From Endomychus coccineus (Eukaryota; Arthropoda; Insecta; Coleoptera; Endomychidae), in contig OY294067.1 of the NCBI GenBank assembly GCA_958510875.1, positions 200,076,524-200,140,523 on the forward strand: a stretch of DNA of 64,000 nt. Reading direction: 5' to 3'. The notes below the pieces were generated by a model. The model was not told the origin of the DNA, did no database searches, and saw nothing but the letters and a program-made list of their open reading frames with translations. Position 1 is the first letter of the stretch. The number at the start of each line of letters is the position of its first letter. Both the position numbers and the translations under genes were made by a program. Shown here piece by piece: positions 28,385 through 53,068 of this stretch.

Positions 28385-28387
28385 ATA

Positions 28388-28423
<36 letters not shown>
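28385..28423. repeat. (TA)n microsatellite
   Basis: A short TA tract lies between the Penelope 3' end and the poly(A) end of the R2-like fragment. Confidence 0.95.
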
Positions 28424-28432
<9 letters not shown>

Positions 28433-31384: not shown

Positions 31385-31390
31385 GATCTA
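31385..31390. repeat. Left 6-bp target site duplication GATCTA
   Basis: GATCTA immediately precedes the AGTAGATT terminus and is repeated exactly at 50,635-50,640. Confidence 0.85.
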
Positions 31391-31700
31391 AGTAGATTAA
31401 GTCCGCTACTTCTCCACCATGAAGTGACGTCATCGACCGGATGTTGCGCGCGCAACTTTGGATGTAACGTTACTAACCCGCGAAATTCAAACGTGACCAT
31501 GGAGCTTACGATGATCATAGAACTTCCGACCATAGAGGTCTGGGTCATGGAATGTGAGGTTGGTTGTATGTGTCGTCATCGACCCGCGAAATTCAAACGT
31601 GTCCATAGAGCTTACGATGATTACAGAACTTCCGACCATAGAGGTCTGGATGTGAGGTTGGTTGGATGTGACGTCATCAACCCGCGAATATAAACGTAGA
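31391..31700. repeat. Terminal tandem repeats of the left arm
   Basis: Two and a half units of about 120 bp share 'cgcgaaattcaaacgtg', 'gagcttacgatga' and 'cttccgaccatagaggtct'. The mirror image lies at 50,325-50,634 in the right arm. Confidence 0.85.
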
Positions 31701-31739
31701 GGTGTGTTGTTTTATGTTTATCATGGCCGACGTTGGAAC

Positions 31740-34620
31740 CGAATGTCAGAAGAGTAAACGTCAAAACCACAATATGACTGATGTTGTAGCTACATCGCCG
31801 CCATCTTCTTATGAACCGATGAACTATGTTACTTAAATGTCAATGTCAGACCAGTTAACTTCAAACGACTACATCTATGAATGAATCGATCAACCGTCAT
31901 GCATACCTGTCAACGTTAGAAATGTTAACGTCAAGGGACGACATCTATGAGGCCACAATTCAAAATATGACTGATGTTATAGCTACATCACCGCCATCTC
32001 TTAATGAACCGATGAACTAGCATACTTAAATGTCAATGTCAGAACAGTTAACTTCAAATGACTACATCTATGAATAAACCGATCAACCGTCATGCGTACC
32101 TGTCAACGTCAAAGGACGACATCTATGAGGTATCTTGTTAATGTTTTTGCGCGGGAAATTTATGAACCGATGAACTATCATAGCTGGATGTCAATGTCAG
32201 AACAGTTAACGTCAAAGGACGACATCTATGAGACTCCAATTCAAAATGTTACCGATGTTGTAGCCTATATCGCAATCTATCACTAAACCGATGAACTATC
32301 ATAGCTGAATGTCAATGTCAGAACAGTTAACGTCAAAGGACGACATCTATGAGGTATTTTGTTAATGTTTTCGAGCGGGAAGTTCCATCTCAATTCAAAA
32401 AAACGATATATTAATGAACTATCATAGCTTGATGTCCATGTCAGGACAGCTAACGTCAAAGGACGACATCTATGAGGTGTTTCGCTGATGTTTGCGAGAG
32501 GAATTTCAAAAATTCGACTCATGTTGTAGCTATACTGTCATTTATTATTGAACCACACCGTAATTCCAAAAATAATGAACTTCTATGAGGTATCTTGTTA
32601 ATGTTTTTGAGCGGGAAATTTATGAACCGATGAACTATCATGGCTGAATGTCATTGTCAGAACAGTTAACGTCAAAGGACGGCATCTATGAGACTCCAAT
32701 TCAAAATGTTACCGATGTTGTAGCCTATATCGCCATCTAATAATAAACCGATGAACTATCATAGATGAATGTCAATGTCAGAAGAGTTAACGTCTAAGGA
32801 CGACATCTATGAGGTATTTTGTTAATGTTTTTGCGCGGGAAGTTTCATCTCAATTCAAAAAACGATATATTAATGAACTATCATAGCTTGATGTCCATGT
32901 CAGAACAGCTAACGCCAAAGGACGACATCTATAAGGTGTTTTACTGATGTTTGCGCGAGGAATTTCAAAAATTTGACTCATGTTGTAGCTATACTGTCAT
33001 TTATTATTGAACCACACCGTTATTCCGAAAATAATGATTTTTCAAAATAACCTTCAACGTTAAATGATTACTTACGTATATGAAATTATTACACCAGAAA
33101 CCACATTGAGTATATGAGAACACGTGGAAGCAATTAATTTTGCATACACCTGCGTCATCACATTCAGTTTATACGAGAATAACAGCGCGTATAAATGAGT
33201 ACAATGGGACTCACTCATTAGGTAAATTATGAAATTCGGTGTCATGGCGGCTATCGCGGGAATTTCAAACGAGGTGTCTGTTACGTAGATCTTCAAGGAG
33301 GTGTCATGGCGTCTGTCACGTGAACTGTCATGGCGGTTATCGCGGGAATTTAAAACAAGGTGTCTGTTACGTGGATCTTCAACGAGATGTTGTGGCGTCT
33401 GTCACGTGAACTGTCATGGCAGCTATCGCGGAAATTTCAAACAAGGTGTCTGTTTCGTGGATCTTCAACGAGGTGTCGTGGCGTATTTCACGTGGGTCTT
33501 AAACAGAATAGAACTGTTTTAGAACCTAAATTACACAAAACAATACCAAATTGAGAGGTATAATAGCTACAGCTGCAGCACTATCAACCGTCATGCATAC
33601 CTGTAAACGTCAGAAATGGTAACGTCAAAAGACGACATCTATGAGGTACTTATGTAATGTTTGCGTGGGAAATTTATGAATCGATGACTATCATGGCTGG
33701 ATGTCAATGTTAGAACAGTTAACGTTAAAGGATGACATCTATGAGACTCCAATTCAAAATATCACTGATGTTGTAGCTATATCGCCATCTATTAATAAAT
33801 CGATGAACTATCACACCTGAATGTCAATGTTAGAACATCCAACGTCAAAGGACGACATCTATGAGATATTTTGTTAATGTTTTTGCGCGGGAAGTCCAAT
33901 CTCAATTCAAAATATGATCTATTAGTGAACCGGTGAACTATCATGACTGGATGTCAATCTCAGAACAGTTAACGTCAAAGGACAACATCTATGAGACCCC
34001 AATTCAAAATATTACTATATCGCCATCTATTAATAAACCGATGAACTATCACACCTGAACGTCAATGTTAGAACAGTTAACGTCAAAGGTCGACATCTAT
34101 GAGATATTTTGTTAATGTTTTTTCGCGGGAAGTCCCATCTCAATTCAAAATATGATCTATTAGTGAACCGGTGAACTATCATGACTGGATGTCAATCTCA
34201 GAACAGTTAACGTCAAAGGACAACATCTATGAGACCCCAATTCAAAATATTACTATATCGCCATCTATTGATAAACCGATGAACTATCACAACTGAATGT
34301 CAATGTCGGAACAGTCAACGTCAAAGGACGATATCTATGAGGTATTTTGTTAAAGTTTTTGCGCAAGAAGTTGCATGTCGATTCAAAATATGATCTATTA
34401 ATGAACCGATGAACTGTCATAGCTGAATATCAATGTCAGAACAGTAAACGTAAGAGGACGACATCTATGAGACCCCTATTCAAAATATTACTGATTCTGT
34501 AGATATATCGCCATCTATTATTAAACCGATGAACTATCATAGTTAAATATCAATTTCGGAACAGCTAACGTCAAGGACGACATCTATGAGGTGTTTTGGT
34601 AACGTTTTGTGTGGAAATCA
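31740..34620. repeat. Subterminal minisatellite of the left arm
   Basis: About 18 diverged units spaced 100-125 bp, each with 'aacagttaacgtcaaagga' and 'cgacatctatgag', plus 'gaaccgatgaactatcat'. A different tandem repeat interrupts them at 33,230-33,500 ('tcgcgggaatttcaaac', 'gtggatcttcaacga'). No convincing coding. The right arm holds the mirror copy at 47,410-50,280. Confidence 0.9.
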
Positions 34621-35430
34621 CTCTCAAAATTAAAAATTGTCACTCATATTGTAGCTATATTGTCGTTCATTAATACCACACCCTAATCTCAAGATAATGA
34701 ACCAGCAAAATAACCTAGAAATGTCCTCAACGTTAAATGTCTACTTACATATACGAAGTGTTTACACCAAAAGCACATTAAGTATTAAGTATTCATTTCT
34801 ACATGCACCTGCGTCATCACATTCACTTTATACTGATTATGACAACGAAAACAGTAGTACAATGAGAGGAATTCATTAAGTAAACAAATAACAATGATTG
34901 AATCATTTTTACTACACACAATCTGTTGAATTTCGTTTAGGGTTGAATGCGAAAATATTAGATTTGATTGTACATATCGATAGTTTGATTAAAATTCTAA
35001 TAATGCATCCCAAACGTTATTTCGTTTATATTGCTTCACACAACATTTGAACGCGTATATTGTTCAAGTGCTTGGAATTGAAAATTCGAATTGTTGGAGA
35101 TTAAGTAATAAGAAATCTCAGGTATGTTGTTTATACTAGCGTGTGTATTGAAATCAAACTTTTGAGAATATCAATGAAATCATACAATTCCAGCAGCCCG
35201 AAGGTTCGTTTGCAATTTTACGAATGATGATGAACGATAGAAATGAACGATTGATTTTTATTGTTATCCACGATTGTCAACCTATATCTAAATCAGTTAG
35301 AGATGCAGACTTTTCAATTTATCGATATTTCGAAAGCCCTCTTATACTGAACTAAGAATTTACAATACTTTAAACTATCCATTTCGCTCAAAATATACAT
35401 AGCAGTATATTATAGAAACTTTGTTAAAGA
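34621..35430. other. Left-arm noncoding spacer
   Basis: AT-rich sequence with no ORF or motif recognised. It is mirrored at 46,645-47,410. Confidence 0.5.
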
Positions 35431-35439
35431 TCACATGTT

Positions 35440-35768
35440 ATATAAAAATCGAATGATTCGAGATGTAGACTCATGAGCTCTAGAAGCCTTAGGATCAGTT
35501 GCAAGAGGTGCAAGTGCTATCGAAAATACGGTGGTTAACCAGCTAAAAACAACGGAACGCATTGGGTAGCGTTCAGAAAAAAATCGATAACGATGTGGAA
35601 TATTTTGATTGTTTTGGAAATTTGAAGCCAACAAAGAAACTCGTTCAATATTTGGGTAGGAACGTTAGGATTTTCTACAATAACTACACTTATCAGAACT
35701 ATAATCAAGTGATATGTGAACAGTTGTGCTTGAACTTTCTCACCGAAATTGTCGAAAGTATCAATTAA
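35440..35768 (+). pseudogene. Adenain-like cysteine protease remnant (left arm)
   Basis: In one frame GTHWVAF supplies the His of an adenovirus-type (C5) protease. In the next frame, after an A7 run at 35,577-35,583, come VEYFDCFG (Asp/Asn region) and YQNYNQVICEQLCLNFL (the Cys block). Polinton proteases usually have CG at the catalytic Cys; here it is CE. The frame change in the A-run is shared by both arms, so it predates the arm duplication or was copied between arms. Just upstream, in another frame, ALGSVARGASAIENTVV resembles the hydrophobic Gly/Ala segment of small Polinton core-like proteins. Such proteases mature virion proteins. This copy is broken and the N-terminal part is lost. 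Confidence 0.6.
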
Positions 35769-35823
35769 ACCTTAGTCAGTCTATATCGAAACATCAAGCG
35801 AATCGCATTCACATCGTATTATC

Positions 35824-36381
35824 ATGTGAATCGCATTAGTTGACATTCAGGGGTTCTTCATTGACGATGCCTTCCATCCAAAAGAAATGTGTATACACAT
35901 TGGATTCAAACGTCATTATTCCTTATTCAAACCGCACACATCTTATTCATCGCTAAATGTAAAGGAGCGAAAGTCCGTATGGTATTTACAAAAGTCTTAT
36001 CATGGACTCGATTATGCATCTGGAAATGTGGATTATGAAGAAATAAATAATATTCTTAAATCGATTCAACTATGTGCAGTCGACTATATTTATGTTCGTG
36101 GTCAGCAAAAAGCAGAGTTTTTGAGAAGGAAGTGTATAGAATTGGATATTTTCCCACACATCGTAGATGTTCACAGTTTCGATGGTACTAAATGTGAAAC
36201 GGGGAAATTCGAGCAAACAAACAATTTGACCTGTCTGAATCATCGTAATGACGGTGGTAAATACATGTGTGCAGTTCAACATGTGGATAAATCACAGCAG
36301 TGGTTTCTGAATGTAATACTACCTAAATTATATGTATTTTCTGAAATAAATATTATTATCACACCTATCTCCTTTATATAA
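35824..36381 (+). pseudogene. Exonuclease-like protein A, left copy (stop at codon 2)
   Basis: The frame opens with ATG at 35,824 but codon 2 is TGA; the right arm has AGA there. After it the frame is open: ALVDIQGF, HPKEM, then YHGLDYASG, IYVRGQQKAEFLRR, and a C-terminal C..H...C cluster (LTCLNHRND and MCAVQHV). DIQxF..KE near the N-terminus followed by YHGxxxxxG and a VYVxGxxK motif defines a family I have seen in arthropod virus-like elements. A DEDD-type exonuclease fold is possible but unproven. It is a paralogue of protein B, which is convergently oriented about 0.5 kb away. The expected full length is about 185 residues. Without a later start the left copy cannot be made at full length. 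Confidence 0.55.
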
Positions 36382-36615
36382 TTATTTATTCAGATGGTAA
36401 ATAATAGCTTTGTTTACATTTTTAACAAACCTTTTCAATATTAATACTGATAAAGAAGATAAAATAGCATACAAAATTGCTAAAATTTTGTGAATAACTC
36501 CTTCTAGTGTGGATGATGCTGATATTGTCTCTTGTATAAGATGTGGTAAACATGATGATTGCCATTCAGCGATATGCTCCATCACTTCGATCATGGAATA
36601 AGAGTTTGAGTTTAT
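36382..36615 (-). CDS. Small membrane-segment ORF, left copy
   Basis: A 70-residue frame from Met (MIEVMEHIAEW) with a hydrophobic stretch, ILAILYAILSSLSVLIL, and a basic tail. In the right arm an ATG seven codons upstream gives 77 residues; here that codon is ATA (36,613-36,615). It might be a single-pass membrane protein. No homologue is recognised. It overlaps nothing and is tail-to-tail with protein A. Confidence 0.4.
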   Translation of the reverse strand: MNSNSYSMIEVMEHIAEWQSSCLPHLIQETISASSTLEGVIHKILAILYAILSSLSVLILKRFVKNVNKAIIYHLNK

Positions 36616-36663
36616 AATGTATGATTGTCTTGTGGAATGTTAAACGTGAATACCTCCAATTGG

Positions 36664-36903
36664 TTATCGTTGATTTATTGTAAAATTCATTGGGTAAGGT
36701 AACACTCCCCCACAAAATTTGTTTTTAACACCCCCACTCTCATCATCCTCACTATTTACACTTAATTTGTTCAGCAGTCTTATAACTTTAATTTTATCTG
36801 CGTAATAATTCAAGTCTCTTCTTAGTTTATGAACTTTTTCCACGAATTCGCAAAGTCTGCGTAAGTATTCTTCAAAAGATATATTTGTAGACTTACTGGA
36901 TAT
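36664..36903 (-). CDS. Small charged ORF without ATG, left copy
   Basis: Eighty codons are open on the minus strand from an ATA directly after a TAG, in both arms. The product would contain FEEYLRRLCEFVEKVHKLRR followed by DLNYYADKIKV and an acidic SEDDES patch, suggesting an amphipathic or coiled-coil helix. Lack of ATG in both arms means it is either started elsewhere (for example by splicing) or dead. Confidence 0.3.
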   Translation of the reverse strand: MSSKSTNISFEEYLRRLCEFVEKVHKLRRDLNYYADKIKVIRLLNKLSVNSEDDESGGVKNKFCGGVLPYPMNFTINQR

Positions 36904-36916
36904 CTACATTATTATT

Positions 36917-37408
36917 TTAAGAGTCACAGTCCTTCGTAAGAAATTCGAATAACTTCCAACTATTCGCACTAGAACACATAGGATTCACACTATTGGGGTG
37001 ATGTAGACAGATAAATTCACAATTTCCTCGCTCTAATTTTGGACATTTATCTTTCAAATTCACCACTTCTACTCGATCTAACCCCAGTTTTTGGAACGCC
37101 CCCCGTAGAAACTTAGCTTTTATCTTCCCACATACATAAACAGTAGCATCCGGATCGATATTTTCCTTCAAAATTTCATACAATTCATCATATTCCTGAT
37201 AGCCTGAGTTCCATGGAATCCCGTGATATTTTTCACAATGAAATATTTTCTTCATTTGCCTCGCGGATAGATGATCCATCGATTTTGGTGGTTTCAATAG
37301 AAAATATTTTTCCAACCTTTTCTCACAGTCCAACAAAGAGAGTTCCTTGATATTATATACGTTTGAAGAAATCGGGAAACTTTGAATATCAACAACTATA
37401 GATGACAT
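36917..37408 (-). CDS. Exonuclease-like protein B, left copy (intact)
   Basis: 163 residues from ATG, complete in both arms. Landmarks: VVDIQSF (residues 5-11), IKELSLL (20-26), YHGIPWNSG (61-69), VYVCGKIKAKFLR (90-102), KCPKLERGNCEFICLHH (121-137) and a later Cys (145). The same spacing is seen in protein A, so the two are paralogues. The acidic and CxxH/C positions look like metal ligands. An RNase H-like or DEDD exonuclease role is only inferred from the DIQ...KE arrangement. It differs from the right copy by Cys58/Arg and Asp120/Gly. It is the best-preserved gene of the element, which argues for recent activity or selection. Confidence 0.6.
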   Translation of the reverse strand: MSSIVVDIQSFPISSNVYNIKELSLLDCEKRLEKYFLLKPPKSMDHLSARQMKKIFHCEKYHGIPWNSGYQEYDELYEILKENIDPDATVYVCGKIKAKFLRGAFQKLGLDRVEVVNLKDKCPKLERGNCEFICLHHPNSVNPMCSSANSWKLFEFLTKDCDS

Positions 37409-37458
37409 TTCAAACTAGAATGATAAACTATTCAAATATCTAGTTGCATATGCGTGGA

Positions 37459-38136
37459 TCATTGACATATTTCTTTGATGTTATCGAAATTTCTAAAGAG
37501 TACGTCGAAGCACAAGATTTGTAGTGATGTTGGACTTATTCTATAGTTGACGTCATCGACCTCCCCTCCTATCTCAGAAAACATTTGAAACATCTTAAAG
37601 GTGTAAGAATTTGAAGTATCTCTTCGAATGCTGCGCATGTCCATTATCTCACATCGGTATGGTAGTAGTGCGATTCGATAAAAATCGACACCCATATCAT
37701 GTAGCACTCTAAAACAATCAAGTATATACGATCCTGGTTTCGGAACGATACCCGAAATTTGATGCAATATGATTTTTCTCATTCTTCTATGTTTATATTT
37801 GAACTGACCTTCTATATTCATATCGATTATCTTCCAATCTTCTGGAGGGGGAGGATCGAAATCTCCTCCGAAATAGAAAATATCAGCATACGCCCAATCG
37901 GTCGAGGCCCCCACAAGGAAAGTTACGAATTCTCCAGCGATTATCCAATTTTTGGATGGTAATTGTATTTCTTCGAGGATTTTCATCAAATTCGGCGGAC
38001 ATACGCTTATTACGAATTTCTTCGCATCGTACACGGTGGTAAGCACACTATGAATAAAACTGTTGTATAATCGAGGAGACATTATTACGAACTGATTCGA
38101 GTTCGATTTAGTCTGAGCAGTCACACACAACAACAC
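37459..38136 (-). CDS. Nucleotidyltransferase-like protein, left copy (intact)
   Basis: The open frame runs 225 codons, but the first codon is GTG. The likely start is the ATG at 38,082 (MSPRLYNSF), giving 207 residues. In the 225-residue numbering, NWIIAGEF (63-70) and WAYADIFYF (81-89) match the G-x-F/A and D-x-D/F strand of minimal nucleotidyltransferase folds. Downstream are LDCFRVLHDMGVDF, EIMDMRSIRRD and SYTFKMFQMFSEIGG, which I associate with viral and transposon NTase-like proteins. The second metal-binding Asp is not obvious (ADIF instead of DxD), so catalysis is uncertain. The right-arm copy carries a 65-bp deletion. Two further truncated copies flank the centre of the palindrome. 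Confidence 0.45.
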   Translation of the reverse strand: MLLCVTAQTKSNSNQFVIMSPRLYNSFIHSVLTTVYDAKKFVISVCPPNLMKILEEIQLPSKNWIIAGEFVTFLVGASTDWAYADIFYFGGDFDPPPPEDWKIIDMNIEGQFKYKHRRMRKIILHQISGIVPKPGSYILDCFRVLHDMGVDFYRIALLPYRCEIMDMRSIRRDTSNSYTFKMFQMFSEIGGEVDDVNYRISPTSLQILCFDVLFRNFDNIKEICQ

Positions 38137-38717
38137 ACTCCCTCATACTCTGCGCTATTGACTTTTTCAACCCAAAATATACAATCAAAACTAAATGGTA
38201 TTCTTGTGGGTGAGAGATAAGAGGTCGATCGAACTGGTAAGTATACATGTAAAATAATAAAACATTTTCAGATAAAAAAATGACGCGGGTTCGGATCCCT
38301 CTGCATCTTTCTCACCAAAGAATACCATTTTTAATCGAACGCGCTAATTCATTTGACGATATGATGGATTGAAGACCTGCGTGACAGACACCTCGGCAGG
38401 TGATAGCCGTCATGACACCTCGTCATATTTTTATGATATTCGATGTGGTTAGAGTCCTGCGCAAACCTTCACACCAACAATCTCTTTGAATCATTCTTCG
38501 CAAAATTGCGTCGAACAAACATAACAAAATCGCAATCATGCGAACCTTCACACCAATAATCTCTCTGAAAATCATCGATATTCTGAAGATGAAATTTGGT
38601 GAATTCTTCACAAGTTGATATCGATCCTACACCCGTAGCAATTGACTTAAATAATGATTGACAATAGTGGAAAACGATAAAAATCAATCGTTTCGAATTA
38701 TTCTGAGTTTTTATTCA
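38000..38717 (-). repeat. Module also present inverted near the palindrome centre
   Basis: Two blocks (38,000-38,240 and 38,455-38,717) recur in opposite orientation at 40,757-40,997 and 40,462-40,735 within the same arm, and again in the right arm. They include the NTase start and the 72-codon frame FHYCQSLFKSIATGVGS, which has no ATG of its own. Each block therefore exists four times in the element. Confidence 0.8.
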
Positions 38718-40166
38718 AATACCTGAATAAAACAAATGCATTACTTGAGTAATCATAGTAGTATAGAGTATTATGCTACTCAGAAATTATGAAGCTTGAA
38801 TGGAATTTGGATTGTTCAAGTTTGTTTACTGAGCTCAGTGGTATAGGTGAGTCGATCAAATGTAATTTAGAATGAATGACCTCATAGAACAGTACTACGT
38901 GTAAGGATCTAAACCACACCACTAGGTCTCAGGATCATTTTCTTAATGGTTCGAAAGTTGACGAGTATAGATCTTTTCTAAATCAGTAAAATATCATTCA
39001 CTTTATTTTCTAAAATGTTCTTCTTTATTTTCTGGTGAAAACGTATTTTAGGTATACATTTTGAGAGCTCTAAAACTATTTCTTGCAGTTTTCTCTCCTG
39101 TGGTATTAGAATAATCAGTCACATCACTCAAAACATGATTGAATTGAATCAATATAATATTTTTATATACATAAAATAGTAACATATTATCTATACTTAA
39201 AATGTCTTTCTCTTTTCAGATTAACTTCGTAGGTGTCGCTGGTTGTGTAGTTCTATTTATGTAGAAGTATCTAGTGTACATATAGAATAATTGAAAATAA
39301 ATTTTATATTTTATTTACTTGAATCTTATAGTTAACTATAATTCATATTACCAAATGAAATTCTTTCTCTAAAACATAAATTCATTCTGATACACCCTTG
39401 TTTAACAAATGTACAACGACCTGATGTGAGGAATGTGCCTGTCAACAATTATTATAGATACATCAGACATTAGATACATCAATGTTCCATCATGTGCGGG
39501 AGATAAATATAAATAATTTACACACTATGCTGACTCATAATTTCTGAGTAGCATGATACTCTATACTACTATAATTACTCAAGTGATGCATTTGTTTTAT
39601 TCATAGATTGATTTAAATAATTATTAACAATCGTGGATTACGATAAAATCAATCTTTTTGATACTTCATTTCATATTTGAAAACATATGTTGAGCAAAAT
39701 GGACAGTTTGAAATATTGTAGATTTTGAGATCAGTAGGCTTTCGAAATATCGACAAATTCACATCGAACTATAATAAAAAACGACCTGCGCGAGGTTAAA
39801 TGAATATTTTGTAGGTGAAGCTCCAACTAAATCGAGAAAAATCAATCAGTTGCAATAAAATGTTCTCCAAAGATAGTGTTAGATCTGATTTTAGAAGAGT
39901 TCGAAATGTCTGCAATGCATGAAAAATCCCCATCAATTTGGGAGGGTCTTTGAAAAACAGGGTAACACCATATCAGATTGTCATTAGTTAATCATCAAAT
40001 ACAATGCACGTTTGCGGGCAAAGTCAAAGGGAATTTTCGAGAGCAATACAAACGTTTTTCTTGGGAGGGTCCAAACGTTCTTTGGGAGGATCCAATCGTT
40101 ATTGGGAGGGTCTTTGAAAACAGGGTAACACTATATCACAATGTCATTAGTTGATCATCAACCACC
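38718..40166. other. Left-arm noncoding spacer before the zinc-finger gene
   Basis: No gene recognised. A partial duplicate of the zinc-finger gene start, with GCACGTTTGCGGGCAAAG, lies at about 40,003-40,060, with 'ttgggaggg' tandem phrases around it. Confidence 0.5.
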
Positions 40167-40487
40167 ATGCACGTTTGCGGGCAATGTCAAAGGGAATTTT
40201 CGAGAGCAAATGCGCTGAGGCGGCACGAGAAAAAACATTTCAAAACACACAGTTTCTCATGCAAGCATTGTGAAGTTACATTTTCTCGCCGAGACAATTT
40301 GAATCGTCGTATTATGTTATTCCACAGTCGAGATAAAAGTATAATGCACTGGTCCAACCCAGATGTTCTACTGCACCGGTCAGAAGAAATCATATCTCTA
40401 CAAGGATATATCGAAGAGAAACGTGAAATAATTAATGAATTGAGAAGATTTTGTAAAAAATGGTATTTGAATAAAAACTCAGAATAA
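40167..40487 (+). CDS. C2H2 zinc-finger protein, left copy (finger 2 His lost)
   Basis: 106 residues from ATG. Finger 1 is complete: CGQCQREFSRANALRRHEKKH. Finger 2 begins CKHCEVTFSRRDNL but reads NRRIMLFH, where the right arm has NRHIMLFH, so one zinc-binding His is Arg. A C-terminal helix rich in Glu/Lys/Arg (EEIISLQGYIEEKREI, ELRRFCKKW) could dimerise or bind nucleic acid. It probably binds DNA of the element or host; the target is unknown. Loss of the His should destabilise finger 2. The right copy has an intact finger 2 but a frameshift in finger 1. Confidence 0.7.
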   Translation: MHVCGQCQREFSRANALRRHEKKHFKTHSFSCKHCEVTFSRRDNLNRRIMLFHSRDKSIMHWSNPDVLLHRSEEIISLQGYIEEKREIINELRRFCKKWYLNKNSE

Positions 40488-40497
40488 TTCGAAACGA

Positions 40498-40716
40498 TTG
40501 TTTTTTATCGTTTTCCACTATTGTCAATCATTATTTAAGTCAATTGCTACGGGTGTAGGATCGAAATCAACTTGTGAAGAATTCACCAAATTTCATCTTC
40601 AGAATATCGATGATTTTCAGAGAGATTATTGGTGTGAAGGTTCGCATGATTGCGATTTTGTTATGTTTGTTCGACGCAATTTTGCGAAGAATGATTCAGA
40701 GAGATTGTTGGTGTGA
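40498..40716 (+). other. 72-codon frame following the zinc-finger gene
   Basis: The open frame (FHYCQSLFKSIATGVGS, then DDFQRDYWCEGSHDCDF) begins at a non-ATG codon 11 bases after the zinc-finger stop. It is present four times in the element with few changes. Conservation in four copies may only reflect recent duplication. No family recognised. Confidence 0.3.
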
Positions 40717-40997
40717 AGGTTCGCGCAGTGTTCATGATTTCACGATTTTAGATGTATACTTACCAGTTCGATCGACCTATTATCTCTCACCCGCAAGAAT
40801 ACCATTTAGTTTTGATTGTATATTTTGGGTTGAAAAAGTCTATAGCGCAGAGTATGAGGGAGTGTGTTGTTGTGTGTGACTGCTTCAACTAAATCGAACT
40901 CGAATCAGTTCGTAATAATGTCTCCTCGATTATACAACAGTTTTATTCATAGTGTGCTTACCACCGCGTACGATGCGAAGAAATTCGTAATAAGCGT

Positions 40998-41142
40998 GAA
41001 ATCTCCTCCGAAATAGAAAATATCAGCATACGCCCAATCGGTCGTGGCCCCCACAAGGAAAGTTACGAATTCTTCAGCGATTATCCAATTTTTGGATGGT
41101 AATTGTAATTCTTCGAGGATTTTCATCAAATTCGGCGGACAT
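40998..41142. other. Unpaired centre (loop) of the palindrome
   Basis: These 145 bp have no inverted partner across the axis. They carry a piece of the minus-strand NTase-like frame (IIAEEFVTFLVGATTDW and ADIFYFGG) that continues only into the right arm. The flanking arms read 'aaattcgtaataagcgt' and its reverse complement. Confidence 0.8.
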
Positions 41143-41276
41143 ACGCTTATTACGAATTTCTTCGCATCGTACGCGGTGGTAAGCACACTATGAATAAAAC
41201 TGTTGTATAATCGAGGAGACATTATTACGAACTGATTCGAGTTCGATTTAGTTGGAGCAGTCATACACAACAACAC
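40998..41276 (-). pseudogene. Truncated NTase-like copy at the palindrome centre
   Basis: Minus strand, starting at the same ATG context (MSPRLYNSF at 41,222) and ending after YFGGDF, where the sequence jumps at 40,998 into the inverted left arm. About 90 residues of the family are kept. The C-terminal half is absent, so it cannot be functional. Confidence 0.75.
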
Positions 41277-41423
41277 ACTCCCTCATACTTTGCGCTATTG
41301 ACTTTTTCAACCCAAAATATACAATAAAAACTAAATGGTATTCTTGCGGGTGAGAGATAAGAGGTCGATCGAACTGGTAAGTATACATCTGAAATCGTGA
41401 AATCATGAACACTGCGCGAACCT

Positions 41424-41642
41424 TCACACCAACAATCTCTCTGAATCATTCTTCGCAAAATTGCGTCGAACAAACATAACAAAATCGCAATCATGCGAAC
41501 CTTCACACCAATAATCTCTCTGAAAATCATCGATATTCTGAAGATGAAATTTGGTAAATTCTTCACAAGTTGATTTCGATCCTACACCCGTAGCAATTGA
41601 CTTAAATAATGATTGACAATAGTGGAAAACGATAAAAATCAA
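41424..41642 (-). other. 72-codon frame, right copy next to the zinc finger
   Basis: Mirror of 40,498-40,716 with the same residues and no ATG. Another copy is at 43,454-43,672 on the plus strand. Confidence 0.3.
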
Positions 41643-41652
41643 TCGTTTCGAA

Positions 41653-42000
41653 TTATTCTGAGTTTTTATTCAAATACCATTTTTTACAAAATCTTCTCAA
41701 TTCATTAATTATTTCACGTTTCTCTTCGATATATCCTTGTAGAGATATGATTTCTTCTAACCGGTGCAGTAGAACATCTGGGTTGGACCAGTGCATTATA
41801 CTTTCATCTCGACTGTGGAATAACATAATATGACGATTCAAATTGTCTCGGCGAGGAAATGTAACTTCACAATGCTTGCATGAGAAACTGTGTGTTTTGA
41901 AATGTTTTTTCTCGTGCCGCCTCAGCGCATTTGCTCTCCAAAAATTCCCTTTGACATTGCCCGCAAACGTGCATGGTGGTTGATGATCAACTAATGACAT
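41653..42000 (-). pseudogene. C2H2 zinc-finger gene, right copy (finger 1 frameshifted)
   Basis: The reading frame changes inside finger 1. The left arm has GGGAATTTTCGAGAGC and the right has one base more (GGGAATTTTTGGAGAGC), which removes the CGQC ligands from the frame. The open frame therefore starts with unrelated residues (MSLVDHQPPCTF) before joining RANALRRHEKKH. Finger 2 is complete here, with CKHCEVTF and NRHIMLFH. The lesion is different from that in the left copy. Confidence 0.75.
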
Positions 42001-43430
42001 TGTGATATAGTGTTACCCTGTTTTCAAAGACCCTCCCAATAACGATTGGATCCTCCCAAAGAACGTTTGGACCCTCCCAAGAAAAACGTTTGTATTGCTC
42101 TCGAAAATTCCCTTTGACTTTTCCCGCAAACGTGCATGATATTTGATGATTAACTAATGACAATCTGATATGGTGTTACCCTGTTTTTCAAAGACCCTCC
42201 CAAATTGATGGGGATTCTTCATGCATTGCAGACATTTCGAACTCTTCTAAAATCAGATCTAACACTATCTTTGGAGAACATTTTATCGTAACTGATTGAT
42301 TTTTCTCGATTTAGTTGGAGCTTCACCTACAAAATATTCATTTAACCTCGCGCAGGTCGTTTTTTATTATAGTTCGATGTGAATTTGTCGATATTTCGAA
42401 AGCCTACTGATCTCAAAATCTACAATATTTCAAACTGTCCATTTTGCTCAACATATGTTTTCAAATATGAAATGAAGTATCAAAAAGATTGATTTTATCG
42501 TAATCCACGATTGTTAATAATTATTTAAATCAATCTATGAATAAAACAAATGCATCACTTGAGTAATTATAGTAGTATAGAGTATCATGCTACTCAGAAA
42601 TTATGAGTCAGCATAGTGTGTAAATTATTTATATTTATCTCCCGCACATGATGGAACATTGATGTATCTAATGTCTGATGTATCTATAATAATTGTTGAC
42701 AGGCACATTCCTCACATCAGGTCGTTGTACATTTGTTAAACAAGGGTGTATCAGAATGAATTTATGTTTTAGAGAAAGAATTTTATTTGGTAATATGAAT
42801 TATAGTTAACTATAAGATTCAAGTAAATAAAATATAAAATTTATTTTCAATTATTTTATATGTACACTAGATACTTCTACATAAATAGAACTACACAACC
42901 AGCGACACCTACGGAGTTAATCTGAAAAGAGAAAGACATTTTAAGTATAGATAATATGTTACTATTTTATGTATATAAAAATATTATATTGATTCAATTC
43001 AATCATGTTTTGAGTGATGTGACTGATTATTCCAATACCACAGGAGAGAAAACTGCAAGAAATAGTTTTAGAGCTCTCAAAATGTATACCTAAAATACGT
43101 TTTCACCAGAAAATAAGGAAGAACATTTTAGAAAATAAAGTGAATGATATTTCACTGATTTAGAAAAGATCTATACTCGTCAACTTTCGAACCATTAAGA
43201 AAATGATCCTGAGACCTAGTGGAGTGGTTTAGATCCTTACACGTAGTACTGTTCTATGAGGTCATTCATTCTAAATTACATTTGATCGACTCACCTATAC
43301 CACTGAGCTCAGTTAACAAACTTGAACAATCCAAATTCCATTCAAGCTTCATAATTTCTGAGTAGCATAATACTATATACTACTATAATTACTCAAGTAA
43401 TGCATTTGTTTTATTCAGGTATTTGAATAA
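42001..43430. other. Right-arm noncoding spacer
   Basis: Mirror of 38,718-40,166. No gene recognised. Confidence 0.5.
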
Positions 43431-44000
43431 AAACTCAGAATAATTCGAAACGATTGATTTTTATCGTTTTCCACTATTGTCAATCATTATTTAAGTCAAT
43501 TGCTACGGGTGTAGGATCGATATCAACTTGTGAAGAATTCACCAAATTTCATCTTCAGAATATCGATGATTTTCAGAGAGATTATTGGTGTGAAGGTTCG
43601 CATGATTGCGATTTTGTTATGTTTGTTCGACGCAATTTTGCGAAGAATGATTCAGAGAGATTGTTGGTGTGAAGGTTCGCGCAGGACTCTAACCACATCG
43701 AATATCATAAAAATATGACGAGGTGTCATGACGGCTATCACCTGCCGAGGTGTCACGCAGGTCTTCAATCCATCATATCGTCAAATGAATTAGCGCGTTC
43801 GATTAAAAATGGTATTCTTTGCTGAGAAAGATGCAGAGGGATCCGAACCCGCGTCATTTTTTCATCTGAAAATGTTTAATTATTTTACATGTATACTTAC
43901 CAGTTCGATGGACCTCTTATCTCTCACCCGCAAGAATACCATTTAGTTTTGATTGTATATTTTGGGTTGAAAAAGTCAATAGCGCAGAGTATGAGGGAGT

Positions 44001-44613
44001 GTGTTGTTGTGTGTGACTGCTCAGACTAAATCGAACTCGAATCAGTTCGTAATAATGTCTCCTCGATTATACAACAGTTTTATTCATAGTGTGCTTACCA
44101 CCGTGTACGATGCGAAGAAATTCGTAATAAGCGTATGTCCGCCGAATTTGATGAAAATCCTCGAAGAAATACAATTACCATCCAAAAATTGGATAATCGC
44201 TGGAGAATTCGTAACTTTCCTTGTGGGGGCCTCGACCGATTGGGCGTATGCTGATATTTTCTATTTCGGAGGAGATTTCGATCCTCCCCCTCCAGAAGAT
44301 TGGAAGATAATCGATATGAATATAGAAGGTCAGTTCAAATATAAACATAGAAGAATGAGAAAAAGTGCTACATGATATGGGTGTCGATTTTTATCGAATC
44401 GCACTACTACCATACCGATGTGAGATAATGGACATGCGCAGCATTCGAAGAGATACTTCAAATTCTTACACCTTTAAGATGTTTCAAATGTTTTCTGAGA
44501 TAGGAGGGGAGGTCGATGACGTCAACTATAGAATAAGTCCAACATCACTACAAATTTTGTGCTTCGACGTACTCTTTCGAAATTTCGATAACATGAAAGA
44601 AATATGTCAATGA
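44001..44613 (+). pseudogene. Nucleotidyltransferase-like gene, right copy (65-bp deletion)
   Basis: Identical landmarks to the left copy up to KYKHRRMRK. Then 65 bp present in the left arm, from the codons for ILHQISG to the Arg after DCF, are missing and the frame shifts at about 44,363. The rest of the gene, from LHDMGVDFYRIALLPYRCEI onward, is open in the other frame and ends at 44,613. The deletion removes the middle of the protein, so this copy is broken while the left one is intact. Confidence 0.8.
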
Positions 44614-44663
44614 TCCACGCATATGCAACTAGATATTTGAATAGTTTATCATTCTAGTTTGAA

Positions 44664-45155
44664 ATGTCATCTATAGTTGTTGATATTCAAAGTTTCCCGA
44701 TTTCTTCAAACGTATATAATATCAAGGAACTCTCTTTGTTGGACTGTGAGAAAAGGTTGGAAAAATATTTTCTATTGAAACCACCAAAATCGATGGATCA
44801 TCTATCCGCGAGGCAAATGAAGAAAATATTTCATCGTGAAAAATATCACGGGATTCCATGGAACTCAGGCTATCAGGAATATGATGAATTGTATGAAATT
44901 TTGAAGGAAAATATCGATCCGGATGCTACTGTTTATGTATGTGGGAAGATAAAAGCTAAGTTTCTACGGGGGGCGTTCCAAAAACTGGGGTTAGATCGAG
45001 TAGAAGTGGTGAATTTGAAAGGTAAATGTCCAAAATTAGAGCGAGGAAATTGTGAATTTATCTGTCTACATCACCCCAATAGTGTGAATCCTATGTGTTC
45101 TAGTGCGAATAGTTGGAAGTTATTCGAATTTCTTACGAAGGACTGTGACTCTTAA
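44664..45155 (+). CDS. Exonuclease-like protein B, right copy (intact)
   Basis: 163 residues, same length and motifs as the left copy (VVDIQSF, IKELSLL, YHGIPWNSG, VYVCGKIKAKFLR and the CxxH/C cluster). Arg58 and Gly120 replace Cys58 and Asp120 of the left copy. Having both copies open contrasts with every other gene pair in the element. The function is uncertain, as for the left copy. Confidence 0.6.
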   Translation: MSSIVVDIQSFPISSNVYNIKELSLLDCEKRLEKYFLLKPPKSMDHLSARQMKKIFHREKYHGIPWNSGYQEYDELYEILKENIDPDATVYVCGKIKAKFLRGAFQKLGLDRVEVVNLKGKCPKLERGNCEFICLHHPNSVNPMCSSANSWKLFEFLTKDCDS

Positions 45156-45168
45156 AATAATAATGTAG

Positions 45169-45408
45169 ATATCTAGTAAGTCTACAAATATATCTTTTGA
45201 AGAATACTTACGCAGACTTTGCGAATTCGTGGAAAAAGTTCATAAACTAAGAAGAGACTTGAATTATTACGCAGATAAAATTAAAGTTATAAGACTGCTG
45301 AACAAATTAAGTGTAAATAGTGAGGATGATGAGAGTGGGGGTGTTAAAAACAAATTTTGTGGGGGAGTGTTACCTTACCCAATGAATTTTACAATAAATC
45401 AACGATAA
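45169..45408 (+). CDS. Small charged ORF without ATG, right copy
   Basis: Mirror of 36,664-36,903, again opened by ATA after TAG. It shows the same EEYLRRLCEFVEKVHKL helix and acidic patch. Confidence 0.3.
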   Translation: MSSKSTNISFEEYLRRLCEFVEKVHKLRRDLNYYADKIKVIRLLNKLSVNSEDDESGGVKNKFCGGVLPYPMNFTINQR

Positions 45409-45456
45409 CCAATTGGAGGTATTCACGTTTAACATTCCACAAGACAATCATACATT

Positions 45457-45690
45457 ATGAACTCAAACTCTTATTCCATGATCGAAGTGATGGAGCATAT
45501 CGCTGAATGGCAATCATCATGTTTACCACATCTTATACAAGAGACAATATCAGCATCATCCACACTAGAAGGAGTTATTCATAAAATTTTAGCAATTTTG
45601 TATGCTATTTTATCTTCTTTATCAGTATTAATATTGGAAAGGTTTGTTAAAAATGTAAACAAAGCTATTATTTACCATCTGAATAAATAA
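45457..45690 (+). CDS. Small membrane-segment ORF, right copy
   Basis: 77 residues from ATG (MNSNSYSMIEVMEHIAEW), with a hydrophobic segment ILAILYAILSSLSVLIL and a basic C-terminus. The upstream ATG is intact here but ATA in the left arm. The product is unknown; a membrane-anchored or membrane-active role is possible. Confidence 0.45.
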   Translation: MNSNSYSMIEVMEHIAEWQSSCLPHLIQETISASSTLEGVIHKILAILYAILSSLSVLILERFVKNVNKAIIYHLNK

Positions 45691-46248
45691 TTATATAAAG
45701 GAGATAGGTGTGATAATAATATTTATTTCAGAAAATACATATAATTTAGGTAGTATTACATTCAGAAACCACTGCTGTGATTTATCCACATGTTGAACTG
45801 CACACACGTATTCACCACCGTCATTACGATGATTCAGACAGGTCAAATTGTTTGTTTGCTCGAATTTCCCCGTTTCACATTTAGTACCATCGAAACTGTG
45901 AACATCTACGATGTGTGAGAAAATATCCAATTCTATACACTTCCTTCTCAAAAACTCTGCTTTTTGCTGACCACGAACATAAATATAGTCGACTGCACAT
46001 AGTTTAAACGATTTAAGAATATTATTTATTTCTTCATAATCCACATTTCCAGATGCATAATCGAGTCCATGATAAGACTTTTGTTAATACCATACGGACT
46101 TTCGCTCCTTTACATTTAGCGATGAATAAGATGTGTGCGGTTTGAATAAGGAATAATGACGTTTGAATCCAATGTGTATACACATTTCTTTTGGATGGAA
46201 GGCATCGTCAATGAAGAACCCCTGAATGTCAACTAATGCGATTCTCAT
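45691..46248 (-). pseudogene. Exonuclease-like protein A, right copy (internal stop)
   Basis: ATG at 46,248 is followed by AGA and an open frame through VDIQGF and KEM. At codon 55 the left arm's TTA is TAA (46,084-46,086), just before QKSYHG. Beyond the stop the frame is open again to 45,691 and keeps the VRGQQKAEF and C..H...C parts. The left copy has the opposite pattern: this codon is sense there, but codon 2 is a stop. Confidence 0.75.
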
Positions 46249-46303
46249 GATAATACGATGTGAATGCGATTCGCTTGATGTTTCGATATAGACTGACTAA
46301 GGT

Positions 46304-46640
46304 TTAATTGATACTTTCGACAATTTCGGTGAGAAAGTTCAAGCACAACTGTTCACATATCACTTGATTATAGTTCTGATAAGTGTAGTTATTGTAGAAA
46401 ATCCTAACGTTCCTACCCAAATATTGAACGAGTTTCTTTGTTGGCTTCAAATTTCCAAAACAATCAAAATATTCCACATCGTTATCGATTTTTTTCTGAA
46501 CGTTACCCAATGCGTTCCGTTGTTTTTAGCTGGTTAACCACCGTATTTTCGATAGCACTTGCACCTCTTGCAACTGATCCTAAGGCTTCTATAGCTCATG
46601 AGTCTACGTCTCGAAACATTCGATTTTTATATAACATGTG
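46304..46640 (-). pseudogene. Adenain-like protease remnant (right arm)
   Basis: Mirror of the left remnant, with the same VEYFDCFG and ICEQLCLNFL blocks and the same frame change at the A-run. Differences from the left arm are few. Confidence 0.6.
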
Positions 46641-47409
46641 ATCTTTAACAAAGTTTCTATAATATACTGCTATGTATATTTTGAGCGAAATGGATAGTTT
46701 AAAGTATTGTAAATTCTTAGTTCAGTATAAGTGGGCTTTCGAAATATCGATAAATTGAAAAGTCTGCATCTCTAACTGATTTAGATATAGGTTGACAATC
46801 GTGGATAACAATAAAAATCAATCGTTCATTTTTATCGTTCATCATCATTCGTAAAATTGCAAACGAACCTTCGGGCTGCTGGAATTGTATGATTTCATTG
46901 ATATTCTCAAAAGTTTGATTTCAATACACACGCTAGTATAAACAACATACCTGAGATTTCTTATTACTTAAGCTCCAAAAATTCGAATTTTCAATTCCAA
47001 GCACTTGAACAATATACGCGTTCAAATGTTGTGTGAACCAATATAAACGAAATAACGTTTGGGATGCATTATTAGAATTTTAATCAAACTATCGATATGT
47101 ACAATCAAATTTAATATTTTCGCATTCAATCCTAAACGAAATTCAACAGATTGTGTGTAGTAAAACTGATTCAATCATTGTTATTTGTTTACTTATTGAA
47201 TTCCTCTCATTGTACTACTGTTGTCGTTGTCATAATCAGTATAAAGTGAATGTGATGACGCAGGTGCATGTAGAAATGAATACTTAATACTTAATGTGCT
47301 TTTGGTGTAAACACTTCATATATGTAAGTAGACATTTAACGTTGAGGACATTTCTAGGTTATTTTGCTGGTTCATTATCTTGAGATTAGGGTGTGGTATT
47401 AATGAACGA

Positions 47410-50280
47410 CAATATAGCTACAATATAAGTGACAATTTTTAATTTTGAGAGTGATTTCCACACAAAACGTTACCAAAACACCTCATAGATGTCGTCCTTG
47501 ACGCTAGCTGTTCCGAAATTGATATTTAACTATGATAGTTCATCGGTTTAATAATAGATGGCGATATATCTACAGAATCCTCTTACGTTTACTGTTCTGA
47601 CATTGACATTCAGCTATGACAGTTCATCGGTTCATTAATAGATCATATTTTGAATCGAAATGCAACTTCCCGCGCAAAAACTTTAACAAAATACCTCATA
47701 GATATCGTCCTTTGACGTTAACTGTTCTGACATTGACATTCAGTTATGATAGTTCATCGGTTTATCAATAGATGGCGATATAGTAATATTTTGAATTGGG
47801 GTCTCATAGATGTTGTCCTTTGACGTTAACTGTTCTGAGATTGACATCCAGTCATGATAGTTCACCGGTTCACTAATAGATCATATTTTGAATTGAGACG
47901 GGACTTCCCGCGCAAAAACATTAACAAAATATCTCATAGATGTCGTCCTTTGACGTTAACTGTTCTAACATTGACGTTCAGGTGTGATAGTTCATCGGTT
48001 TATTAATAGATGGCGATATAGTAATATTTTGAATTGGGGTCTCATAGATGTTGTCCTTTGACGTTAACTGTTCTGAGATTGACATCCAGTCATGATAGTT
48101 CACCGGTTCACTAATAGATCATATTTCGAATTGAGATGGGACTTCCCGCGCAAAAACATTAACAAAATATCTCATAGATGTCGTCCTTTGACGTTAACTG
48201 TTCTCACATTGACATTCAGGTGTGATAGTTCATCGATTTATTAATAGATGGCGATATAGCTACAACATCAGTAATATTTTGAATTGGAGTCTCATAGATG
48301 TCATCCTTCGACGTTAACTGTTCTAACATTGACATCCAGCCATGATAGTCATCGATTCATAAATTTCCCACGCAAACATTACATAAGTACCTCATAGATG
48401 TCGTCTTTTGACGTTACCATTTCTGACGTTTACAGGTATGCATGACGGTTGATAGTGCTGCAGCTGTAGCTATTATACCTCTCAATTTAGTATTGTTTTG
48501 TGTAATTTAGGTTCCAAAACAGTTCTATTCTGTTTAAGACCCACGTGAAATACGCCACGACACCTCGTTGAAGATCCACGAAACAGACACCTTGTTTGAA
48601 ATTTCCGCGATAGCTGCCATGACAGTTCACGTGACAGACGCCACAACATCTCGTTGAAGATCCACGTAACAGACACCTCGTTTCAAATTCCCGCGATAAC
48701 CGCCATGACAGTTCACGTGACAGACGCCATGACACCTCCTTGAAGATCTACGTAACAGACACCTCGTTTGAAATTCCCGCGATAGCCGCCATGACACCGA
48801 ATTTCATAGTTTACCTAATGAGTGAGTCCCATTGTACTCATTTATACGCGCTGTTATTCTCGTATAAACTGAATGTGATGACGCAGGTGTATGCAAAATT
48901 AATTGCTTCCACGTGTTCTCATATACTCAATGTGGTTTCTGGTGTAATAATTTCATATACGTAAGTAATCATTTAACGTTGGAGGTTATTTTGAAAATTC
49001 ATTATTTTTGGAATTACGGTGTGGTTCAATAATAAATGACAGTATAGCTATAACATGAGTCAAATTTTTGAAATTCCTCGCGCAAACATCAGTAAAACAC
49101 CTTATAGATGTCGTCCTTTGGCGTTAGCTGTTCTGACATGGACATCAAGCTATGATAGTTCATTAATATTTCGTTTTTTGAATTGAGATGAAACTTCCCG
49201 CGCAAAAACATTAACAAAATACCTCATAGAAGTCGTCCTTTGACGTTAACTGTTCTGACATTGACATTCAGCTATGATAGTTCATCGGTTTAGTGATAGA
49301 TGGCGATATAGGCTACAACATCGGTAACATTTTGAATTGGAGTCTCATAGATGTCGTCCTTTGACGTTAACTGTTCTGACATTGACATCCAGCCATGATA
49401 GTTCATCGGTTCATAAATTTGCCGCTCAAAAACATTAACAAGATACCTCATAGAAGTTCATTATTTTTGGAATTACGGTGTGGTTCAATAATAAATGACA
49501 ACATGAGTCAAATTCTCGAAATTCCTGGCGCAAACATCAGCAAAACACCTCATAGATGTCGTCCTTTGACGTTAGCTGTCCTGACATGGACATCAACCTA
49601 TGATAGTTCATTAATATATCGTTTTTTTGAATTGAGATGGAACTTCTCGCTCGAAAACATTAACAAAATACCTCATAGATGTCGTCCTTCGACGTTAACT
49701 GTTCTGACATTGACATTCAGCTATGATAGTTCATCGGTTTAGTGATAGATGGCGATATAGGCTACAACATCGGTAACATTTTGAATTGGAGTCTCATAGA
49801 TGTCGTCCTTTGTCGTTAACTGTTCTGACGTTGACATCCAGCTATGATAGTTCATCGGTTCATAAATTTCCCGCGCAAAAACATTAACAAGATACCTCAT
49901 AGATGTCGTCCTTTGACGTTGACAGGTACGCTGACGGTTGATCGGTTCATTCATAGATGTAGTCATTTGAAGTTAACTGTTCTGACATTGACATTTAAGT
50001 ATGATAGTTCATTGGTTCATTAAGAGATGGCGGTGATGTAGCTATAACATCAGTCATATTTTGAATTGTGGCCTCATAGATGTCGTCCCTTGACGTTAAC
50101 ATTTCTGACGTTGACAGGTATCCATGACGGTTGATCGATTCATTCATAGATGTATTCGTTTGAAGTTAACTGGTCTGACATTGACATTTAAGTAACATAG
50201 TTCATCGGTTCATCAGAAGATGGCGGCAATGTAGCTACAACATCAGTCATATTGTGGTTTTGACGTTTACTCTTCTGACA
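47410..50280. repeat. Subterminal minisatellite of the right arm
   Basis: Mirror of 31,740-34,620, with the same unit landmarks in reverse complement and the interrupting 'cgcgatagccgccatgaca' block at 48,530-48,800. Unit-level indels between the arms account for part of the arm length difference. Confidence 0.9.
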
Positions 50281-50634
50281 TTCGGTTCCAACGTCGGCCA
50301 TGATAAACATCAAACAACACACCTCTACGTTTTAATTTCGCGGGTTGATGACGTCACATCCAACCAACCTCACATCCAGACCTCTATGGTCGGAAGTTCT
50401 GTAATCATCGTAAGCTCTATGGACACGTTTGAATTTCGCGGGTCGATGACGTCACATACAACCAACCTCAAATTCTATGACCCAGACCTCTATGGTCGGA
50501 AGTTCTATGATCATCGTAAGCTCCATGGTCACGTTTGAATTTCGCGGGTTATTAACGTTACATCCAAAGTTGCGCGCGCAACATCCGGTCGATGACGTCC
50601 CTTCCTGGTGGAGAAGTAGCGGACTTAATCTACT

Positions 50635-50640
50635 GATCTA
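50635..50640. repeat. Right 6-bp target site duplication GATCTA
   Basis: Directly follows AATCTACT, the right terminus, and matches 31,385-31,390. Confidence 0.85.
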
Positions 50641-53043: not shown

Positions 53044-53068
53044 ATATATATATATATATATATATATA
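53044..53068. repeat. (TA)n microsatellite
   Basis: A short TA tract joins the Penelope 3' end to the truncated 5' end of the R2-like element. Confidence 0.95.

What the first reader, a model, noticed from the sequence alone, without database searches (positions are those of the whole stretch)
31391..50634. A 19.2-kb palindromic Polinton-like element whose inverted repeats are almost the whole element
Seen: the two halves are reverse complements over about 9.5 kb each, with only a 145-bp unpaired centre. The same gene set is present twice, head to head. Known: Polintons/Mavericks have AGT ends, 6-bp target duplications, protein-primed replication and usually inverted repeats of hundreds of bases. 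Inference: a replication intermediate of a Polinton-like element folded back or switched template, giving a dimer-like palindrome that was then integrated by standard Polinton integrase supplied elsewhere. I know of no described element of this form.
Basis: partly seen in the sequence, partly recalled or inferred. Interest (0 to 1): 0.9.

Follow-up and report, generated by a model that had tools for sequence, protein, structure and literature searches.

The report
Palindromic Polinton-like snapback element
This is a 19.2-kilobase stretch of DNA whose two halves are near-exact mirror images, with Maverick-type transposon ends and a duplicated target site; it likely arose when the DNA of a Polinton-like element folded back on itself before inserting into a chromosome, which would make it a fossil of a defective "snapback" genome.

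Summary
The palindrome is real. Positions 31391-50634 (19,244 bp) are two arms that align over 9,490 bp at 98.5% identity around an unpaired 145-bp centre. The ends are AGTAGA...TCTACT, flanked by the direct repeat GATCTA: one base off the commonest vertebrate Maverick end motif, with the Maverick 6-bp target duplication (PMC8097293, passages). No polymerase or integrase was recognised in 27 of 46 translated frames, so by gene content it is not a Polinton.

New here: doubling of the arm was the second fold-back. Each arm holds an older inverted repeat; 13 of 27 variable sites group inner with inner and outer with outer copies, none group by arm. The centre is the cut-off continuation of that older copy, and the turn shares no bases.

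Most likely a linear intermediate became an asymmetric snapback genome, as described for AAV, and was then integrated. Against a one-step history, the outer 3.7 kb differ twice as much as the inner part, so conversion in place is a live rival. The decisive host-genome search did not complete.

The parts
31385..31390 (.). target site duplication GATCTA, left copy
   Evidence: sequence
50635..50640 (.). target site duplication GATCTA, right copy
   Evidence: sequence; chance about 0.0005
31391..40997 (+). left arm of the palindrome, begins AGTAGATTAAGTCCGCTACT
41143..50634 (-). right arm of the palindrome, ends ...CTTAATCTACT
40998..41142 (.). 145-bp unpaired centre; 3 of 145 bases differ from the matching part of the 207-aa gene in either arm, so it is that gene's truncated second copy
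31391..34608 (+). outer part of left arm with tandem arrays of 460, 86 and 238 bp units; no recognised gene
47578..50634 (-). mirror of the outer part in the right arm, corresponding tandem arrays
35887..36381 (+). ORF 164 aa, paralogue of the 163-aa ORF (32% over 142 aa); open in left arm, early stop in right arm
36917..37408 (-). ORF 163 aa, left copy; the alignment with its paralogue finds one unnamed protein (E 2.9e-22)
44664..45155 (+). ORF 163 aa, right copy, open
37459..38082 (-). ORF 207 aa, no relative found; left copy open, right copy lacks 65 bp and is interrupted
40167..40487 (+). ORF 106 aa with C2H2 zinc fingers (Pfam PF00096, 4e-07), left copy
41653..42000 (-). zinc-finger ORF 115 aa, right copy (just below Pfam's cut-off)
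38003..38723 (+). older inverted repeat X, left outer copy (X1)
40462..40997 (-). older inverted repeat X, left inner copy (X2), lacks 185 bp present in X1
41143..41678 (+). older inverted repeat X, right inner copy (X3), lacks the same stretch
43418..44134 (-). older inverted repeat X, right outer copy (X4)
38724..40461 (+). Y, the 1,738-bp loop of the older inverted repeat, left copy, holds most of the zinc-finger ORF

Best explanation
The locus is a 19,244-bp near-perfect palindrome with Maverick-type ends and a 6-bp target duplication, and it most likely formed when the linear DNA of a Polinton-like element folded back, or was end-joined to a sister copy, into an inverted dimer that was then likely inserted whole by an integrase supplied elsewhere. 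Shown: the palindrome, its ends, the target duplication, the 145-bp asymmetric centre that continues the 207-aa gene on the strand read from the right end, and the order of events (an inverted repeat inside the arm first, the doubling of the arm second). Inferred: a strand begun at one end would be synthesised for about 9.6 kb, break or stall inside the gene, be joined back to itself at a point 145 nt upstream without shared bases, and be copied back to its own 5' end. The resulting hairpin would have one terminus repeated at both ends after one more round of replication, so it keeps what end-primed replication and integration need while losing the other half of the parent. It would therefore be a defective, helper-dependent genome. 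Since doubling, the differences between the arms show no selection on the ORFs.
For: Arms 98.5% identical, the palindrome stopping exactly at transposon-type ends inside the GATCTA duplication, so the doubled unit is the flanked unit. End motif and 6-bp duplication close to Mavericks. The centre is asymmetric, as expected of a fold-back with a loop, and has no shared bases at the turn. Two rounds: 13 of 27 variable sites group X1 with X4 and X2 with X3, no two-two split groups X1 with X2 or X1 with X3, and the gap of about 185 bp is shared by X2 and X3. Symmetric and asymmetric snapback genomes with a loop, that replicate with helper functions and inhibit when in excess, are described for AAV, and its authors propose end joining (PMC8235507, passages read). 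Changes in the four ORFs between arms are 14 replacement or stop to 2 silent.
Against: If the arms were identical at insertion, divergence should be even; instead the outer 3,662 aligned bp differ by 2.2% and the inner 5,830 by 1.0% (0 of 300 permutations reach it; Fisher 7e-06, and 0.0015 against inner non-coding only). No polymerase or integrase gene ties it to protein-primed replication, and no stop-to-stop frame in the element exceeds 227 codons. No parent or second copy could be examined. No listed paper's title or abstract start describes such an element in Polintons.
Confidence: 0.5

Rival explanations
1. The palindrome formed in the chromosome after insertion. An ordinary Polinton-like element with terminal repeats of about 3.2 to 3.7 kb was inserted first; later its right half was replaced by an inverted copy of the left half through break repair or template switching that began near the centre and rejoined inside the right terminal repeat.
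For: The outer 3.7 kb differ by 2.2%, the inner part by 1.0%, with a best change point at 35100: terminal repeats would be older than the doubled interior. The target duplication would be kept without further assumptions.
Against: It needs a second junction placed without trace inside the right terminal repeat. Ectopic conversion with other terminal repeats of the family could also raise outer divergence (untested). ORFs differ less (15 of 2,248, 0.67%) than inner non-coding parts (1.0 to 1.7%), so evenness fails inside the doubled part too.
Confidence: 0.25
2. The palindromic form is itself a stable mobile lineage (a satellite) that has spread as such, each copy being mobilised by Polinton enzymes; the two-step history was acquired while moving.
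For: Two successive fold-back events, with about 4% divergence within and 1.0 to 1.7% between arms for the same repeat, imply that the first product went on replicating before the second event. The 163-aa ORF is open in both arms.
Against: No second copy seen; the window holds only one and the genome could not be searched. Long perfect palindromes are unstable in many cells (general knowledge). Changes between arms show no selection on the ORFs.
Confidence: 0.15
3. It is a foldback element of another DNA transposon superfamily that happens to have AGT ends and a 6-bp duplication.
For: No Polinton core gene found. Long-armed foldback forms are known from the P (Galileo, PMC4168063) and Mutator (Tm1, PMC3169594) superfamilies, seen here as search listings only.
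Against: The superfamilies known to me for long foldback arms make 7 to 9 bp duplications (recalled). The end motif matches the Maverick one in five of six bases.
Confidence: 0.08
4. Assembly or sequencing artefact, such as an uncut hairpin read joined as a palindrome.
For: Palindromic artefacts are common in long-read and amplified data (general knowledge).
Against: 140 substitutions and indels of 65, 36 and 11 bp separate the arms, the palindrome stops exactly at transposon-type ends with a target duplication, and the inverted repeats in the flanks lie on another axis.
Confidence: 0.02

Closest known systems
Polintons/Mavericks (vertebrate set of PMC8097293, passages read)
   Same: AGT-type ends as inverted repeats (their commonest motif is (AGT)2//(ACT)2; here AGTAGA//TCTACT), 6-bp target duplication, total length within their 12.7 to 24.6 kb.
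   Different: Their terminal repeats are 46 to 1,447 bp; here the inverted repeats are the whole element except 145 bp. No polymerase or integrase was recognised by Pfam here; some of their core genes may have no Pfam model, so those are untested.
AAV snapback (defective interfering) genomes, PMC8235507 (passages read, start of abstract included)
   Same: Part of a linear genome doubled as a self-complementary molecule; asymmetric forms have an unpaired loop; end joining proposed.
   Different: A parvovirus of about 4.7 kb in virions; here 19.2 kb with Polinton-type ends and set in a chromosome.
Palindromic derivatives of protein-primed replicons: adenovirus defective genomes with duplicated left ends, hairpin and palindromic forms of yeast linear killer plasmids (recalled, no paper seen)
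   Same: Expected way for an end-primed linear replicon to double one end.
   Different: Extrachromosomal; no target duplication.
Origin-dependent inverted-repeat amplification, PMC4689423 (passages read)
   Same: A replication error at inverted repeats gives an inverted dimer that later integrates.
   Different: Circular dimer integrated by homologous recombination into yeast chromosomes; short inverted repeats are proposed as the site of fork closure, while the younger turn here shows no shared bases.
Galileo and other foldback transposons (PMC4168063, search listing only)
   Same: Very long inverted repeats, tandem repeats inside them (recalled).
   Different: Shorter arms and other duplication lengths (recalled); arms not whole gene sets.

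Membership tests
Polinton/Maverick | AGT or AG ends as inverted repeats | tested here: met
   AGTAGATTAAG at 31391 and its complement ending at 50634; motif of PMC8097293, five of six bases
Polinton/Maverick | 6-bp target site duplication | tested here: met
   GATCTA on both sides
Polinton/Maverick | protein-primed PolB | tested here: not met
   27 of 46 translated frames of at least 70 aa scanned against Pfam, no polymerase; longest frame in the element 227 codons
Polinton/Maverick | retroviral-type integrase | tested here: not met
   same scans; the only integrase match in the proteins scanned is at 62845-63825, outside
Polinton/Maverick | capsid, ATPase and protease genes | tested here: inconclusive
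   no Pfam match in the same scans, but Pfam may miss diverged ones; the 163- and 207-aa proteins have no usable fold model (pLDDT 41.7 and 37.3)
Polinton/Maverick | shared ends with an autonomous copy in the same genome | not tested
   The genome search did not complete (15 calls)
Snapback (defective interfering) genome | one terminus plus part of a genome, doubled as an inverted repeat | tested here: met
   that it is part of a larger parent is inferred
Snapback (defective interfering) genome | a turn with or without a loop, the loop made of the sequence that continues one arm | tested here: met
Snapback (defective interfering) genome | depends on and competes with a helper | not testable with these tools
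   needs parent and expression data
Snapback (defective interfering) genome | arms identical when formed, so later divergence is even | tested here: not met
   2.2% outer against 1.0% inner; conversion with other copies may explain it, untested. This is an expectation of the model, not a defining trait of the class

The most novel reading that the evidence does not exclude
Polinton-like viruses make self-complementary snapback satellites as AAV does, and these are integrated by the Polinton integrase and inherited: this locus is a two-generation record of one, in which a first fold-back product kept replicating before a second fold-back doubled it and it was inserted.
Probability: 0.3. Interest if true: 0.85.

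Novelty: new variant of a known kind. Interest (0 to 1): 0.62.

Why it matters
Protein-primed replication of Polintons is inferred from their polymerase gene; as far as I recall, intermediates have hardly been seen. An integrated snapback genome would be physical evidence of a linear, end-primed, extrachromosomal stage and of defective satellites in this group, and would make both testable by looking for further copies with the same ends and turn points in animal genomes.

Tried and rejected
Relatives: the 163-aa and 207-aa proteins alone found nothing among 5.8 billion proteins (14 and 41 candidates, none below E 0.01). The pair alignment A1 found one protein, P0001 (1 of 143 candidates at E 0.1, E 2.9e-22), from an unnamed source on contigs of at most 1,920 bp, so it gives no context. 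Scans of viral contigs: no locus confirmed (15, 3, 36, 249 and 7 stretches matched a pattern); genome contigs none of 122; phages none for the 163-aa protein. The 16-base terminus matched one viral contig (L001), which is G+C-rich with phage-like ORFs (my reading) and no further likeness to the end beyond the 16 bases: taken as chance.

Pfam: besides the zinc finger, one search listed sub-threshold matches for five of the other proteins, the best TPPII to the 207-aa ORF (E 0.0067, 16.4 bits against a cut-off of 29.7); I give them no weight. Searches listed none at E 0.01.

Structure: one model from a single sequence and one from three rows, pLDDT 37.3 and 41.7, too poor for a fold search, so none was made. 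No match among solved structures for the 207-aa protein or for alignment A2.

Rejected: assembly artefact (140 differences, exact ends); selection on both gene sets since doubling (14 replacement or stop to 2 silent); a single origin of all inverted repeats at one time. Joining the host flanks at the empty site showed no long forward frame across it (three frames, 80 codons a side printed); this says nothing for or against. I tested whether outer divergence comes from exchange between the two 460-bp units of an arm: of 35 variable sites 10 group by unit and none by arm, so no strong concerted change within arms.

Full report
Observation. Self-comparison of the window shows that 31391-40997 and 41143-50634 are reverse complements. 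The arms align over 9,490 bp with 140 substitutions, 98.5% identity, and seven gaps, of which 65, 36 and 11 bp are the largest. The centre, 40998-41142, is unpaired. The palindrome ends exactly at AGTAGATTAAG / CTTAATCTACT, and GATCTA stands directly outside on both sides; chance for six matching bases is about 0.0005. BLAST of the element against the rest of the window found nothing at E 1e-3.

Genes. Each arm has, from outside in, about 3.2 kb made largely of tandem units of 460, 86 and 238 bp, an ORF of 164 aa, an ORF of 163 aa facing it, an ORF of 207 aa, and a small C2H2 zinc-finger ORF. The 164- and 163-aa proteins are paralogues (32% over 142 aa). Their alignment finds one distant relative, a protein of 163 aa from an unnamed source (E 2.9e-22), which shares with both the start VDIQ.F and the motif YV.G..KA.FL. 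Of the 46 stop-to-stop frames of at least 70 aa in the element, I scanned 27 against Pfam: all 24 of the left arm and 3 of the right. Only the left zinc finger passes a Pfam cut-off; none is a polymerase or integrase. The same library does find an integrase in a flanking retroelement. PHROGs, on six proteins, matched the zinc finger only. The left arm has open 164-, 163- and 207-aa ORFs; the right arm has an early stop in the 164-aa ORF and lacks 65 bp of the 207-aa ORF.

Two events, in order. Inside each arm a further inverted repeat, X, flanks a 1,738-bp loop Y. Aligning the four X copies over 536 columns without gaps gives 27 variable sites: 13 separate the two outer copies from the two inner copies, no site separates left from right or the crossed pairs, 13 are changes in one copy, and 1 has three states. 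The inner copies also share a gap of about 185 bp. X within an arm differs by 3.7 to 3.9%, against 1.0 and 1.7% between arms. So the inverted repeat X existed before the arm was doubled. The 145-bp centre differs at 3 of 145 bases from the 207-aa gene in either arm: it is the next stretch of the second, inverted gene copy, cut off by the younger turn. The older repeat was thus at least 866 bp long in its outer copy (37858-38723).

The turn. Read from the right end, the strand runs through the gene start, on through the 145 bases to ...GGAGGAGATTTC, and then continues as ACGCTTATTACG, the complement of what it had passed 145 bases earlier. No base is shared at the switch. A fold-back with a 145-nt loop, or the joining of two broken sister ends at slightly different points, gives this form. 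At the X-Y border lies a perfect 9-bp inverted repeat with a 6-base loop (TTTTATTCA AATACC TGAATAAAA); I noticed it by eye and did not test it against chance.

Age and selection. Between the arms, the four ORFs differ by 14 changes that alter the protein or end it and 2 silent ones, on about 383 silent and 1,537 replacement sites. There is no sign of selection since doubling. Divergence is not even: the best single change point is at 35100, with 81 of 3,662 outside and 60 of 5,830 inside (one of the 60 lies in the centre); none of 300 permutations gives as strong a change. The outermost 727 bp, outside the large arrays, already show 2.3%; the ORF stretch 0.67%; inner non-coding parts 1.0 to 1.7%. 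This is the main result against a one-step origin just before insertion. It could mean that the outer parts are the older terminal repeats of a normal element and that the interior was doubled in place, or that terminal repeats exchanged sequence with other copies of the family.

Interpretation. The ends and the 6-bp duplication are those of Mavericks: in vertebrates the commonest end motif is (AGT)2//(ACT)2, with 6-bp duplications and terminal repeats of 46 to 1,447 bp (PMC8097293, passages read). Only ends and duplication tie this element to them; by gene content it fails the membership test. What it works like is a snapback genome. In AAV, single-genome sequencing found symmetric and asymmetric self-complementary partial genomes, the asymmetric ones with a loop, able to replicate with helper functions and inhibitory when in excess, and the authors propose end joining (PMC8235507, passages read). 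I recall similar palindromic defective forms of adenovirus and of yeast linear plasmids, both protein-primed, but saw no paper on them (searches listed none). Polintons encode a protein-primed polymerase and a retroviral-like integrase (PMC6431247, passages read), so the same error is expected of them. The step from such a molecule to this locus is integration, which the target duplication supports.

Literature. Searches for Polinton with palindrome (25 of 44 listed), Maverick with palindrome and terminal repeats in insects (25 of 81 listed), and Polinton with snapback and related terms (12 of 443 listed) showed no paper whose title or abstract start describes a palindromic Polinton. I saw listings, not the papers, so this is weak evidence of absence.

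Limits. The window's flanks carry reverse transcriptase and integrase ORFs of retroelements, from which I infer a eukaryote, probably an animal. No second copy, parent or allele could be examined because the genome search did not answer in any of 15 calls. Confidence in formation before insertion is therefore about one half.

Noticed in passing
26054-29163 and 51938-55790: Repeats lie in opposite orientation on the two sides of the element (91 to 99% identity, another axis than the palindrome), with ORFs that I recognise from memory as Penelope-like reverse transcriptase pieces; two of them had no Pfam match.
   Followed up: partly
26290-26363, 26523-26590, 54708-54781, 55182-55255: Four tRNA-Ser(AGA) predictions, two of them in a 474-bp tandem repeat (54610-55633), with long AT runs nearby; perhaps part of the flanking repeat family.
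   Followed up: no
61232-63825: Retroelement ORF with integrase domains (PF17921 above its cut-off, PF00665 below it) followed by a 553-aa frame without Pfam match; together they recall a gypsy-type element with an envelope-like gene (recalled).
   Followed up: partly
12161-13093: 310-aa open frame without Pfam match, looks like a piece of a transposase (impression only).
   Followed up: no
35830-37414: The 164- and 163-aa paralogues face each other, which may be the trace of a still older inverted duplication inside the arm.
   Followed up: no
31391-31410 and 50615-50634: The first 20 bases contain AGTAG and its complement CTACT, so they could pair; neither tip takes exactly that fold.
   Followed up: partly
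31391-50634: The element is richer in CpG (observed/expected 1.19) than its flanks (0.92 and 0.93).
   Followed up: no
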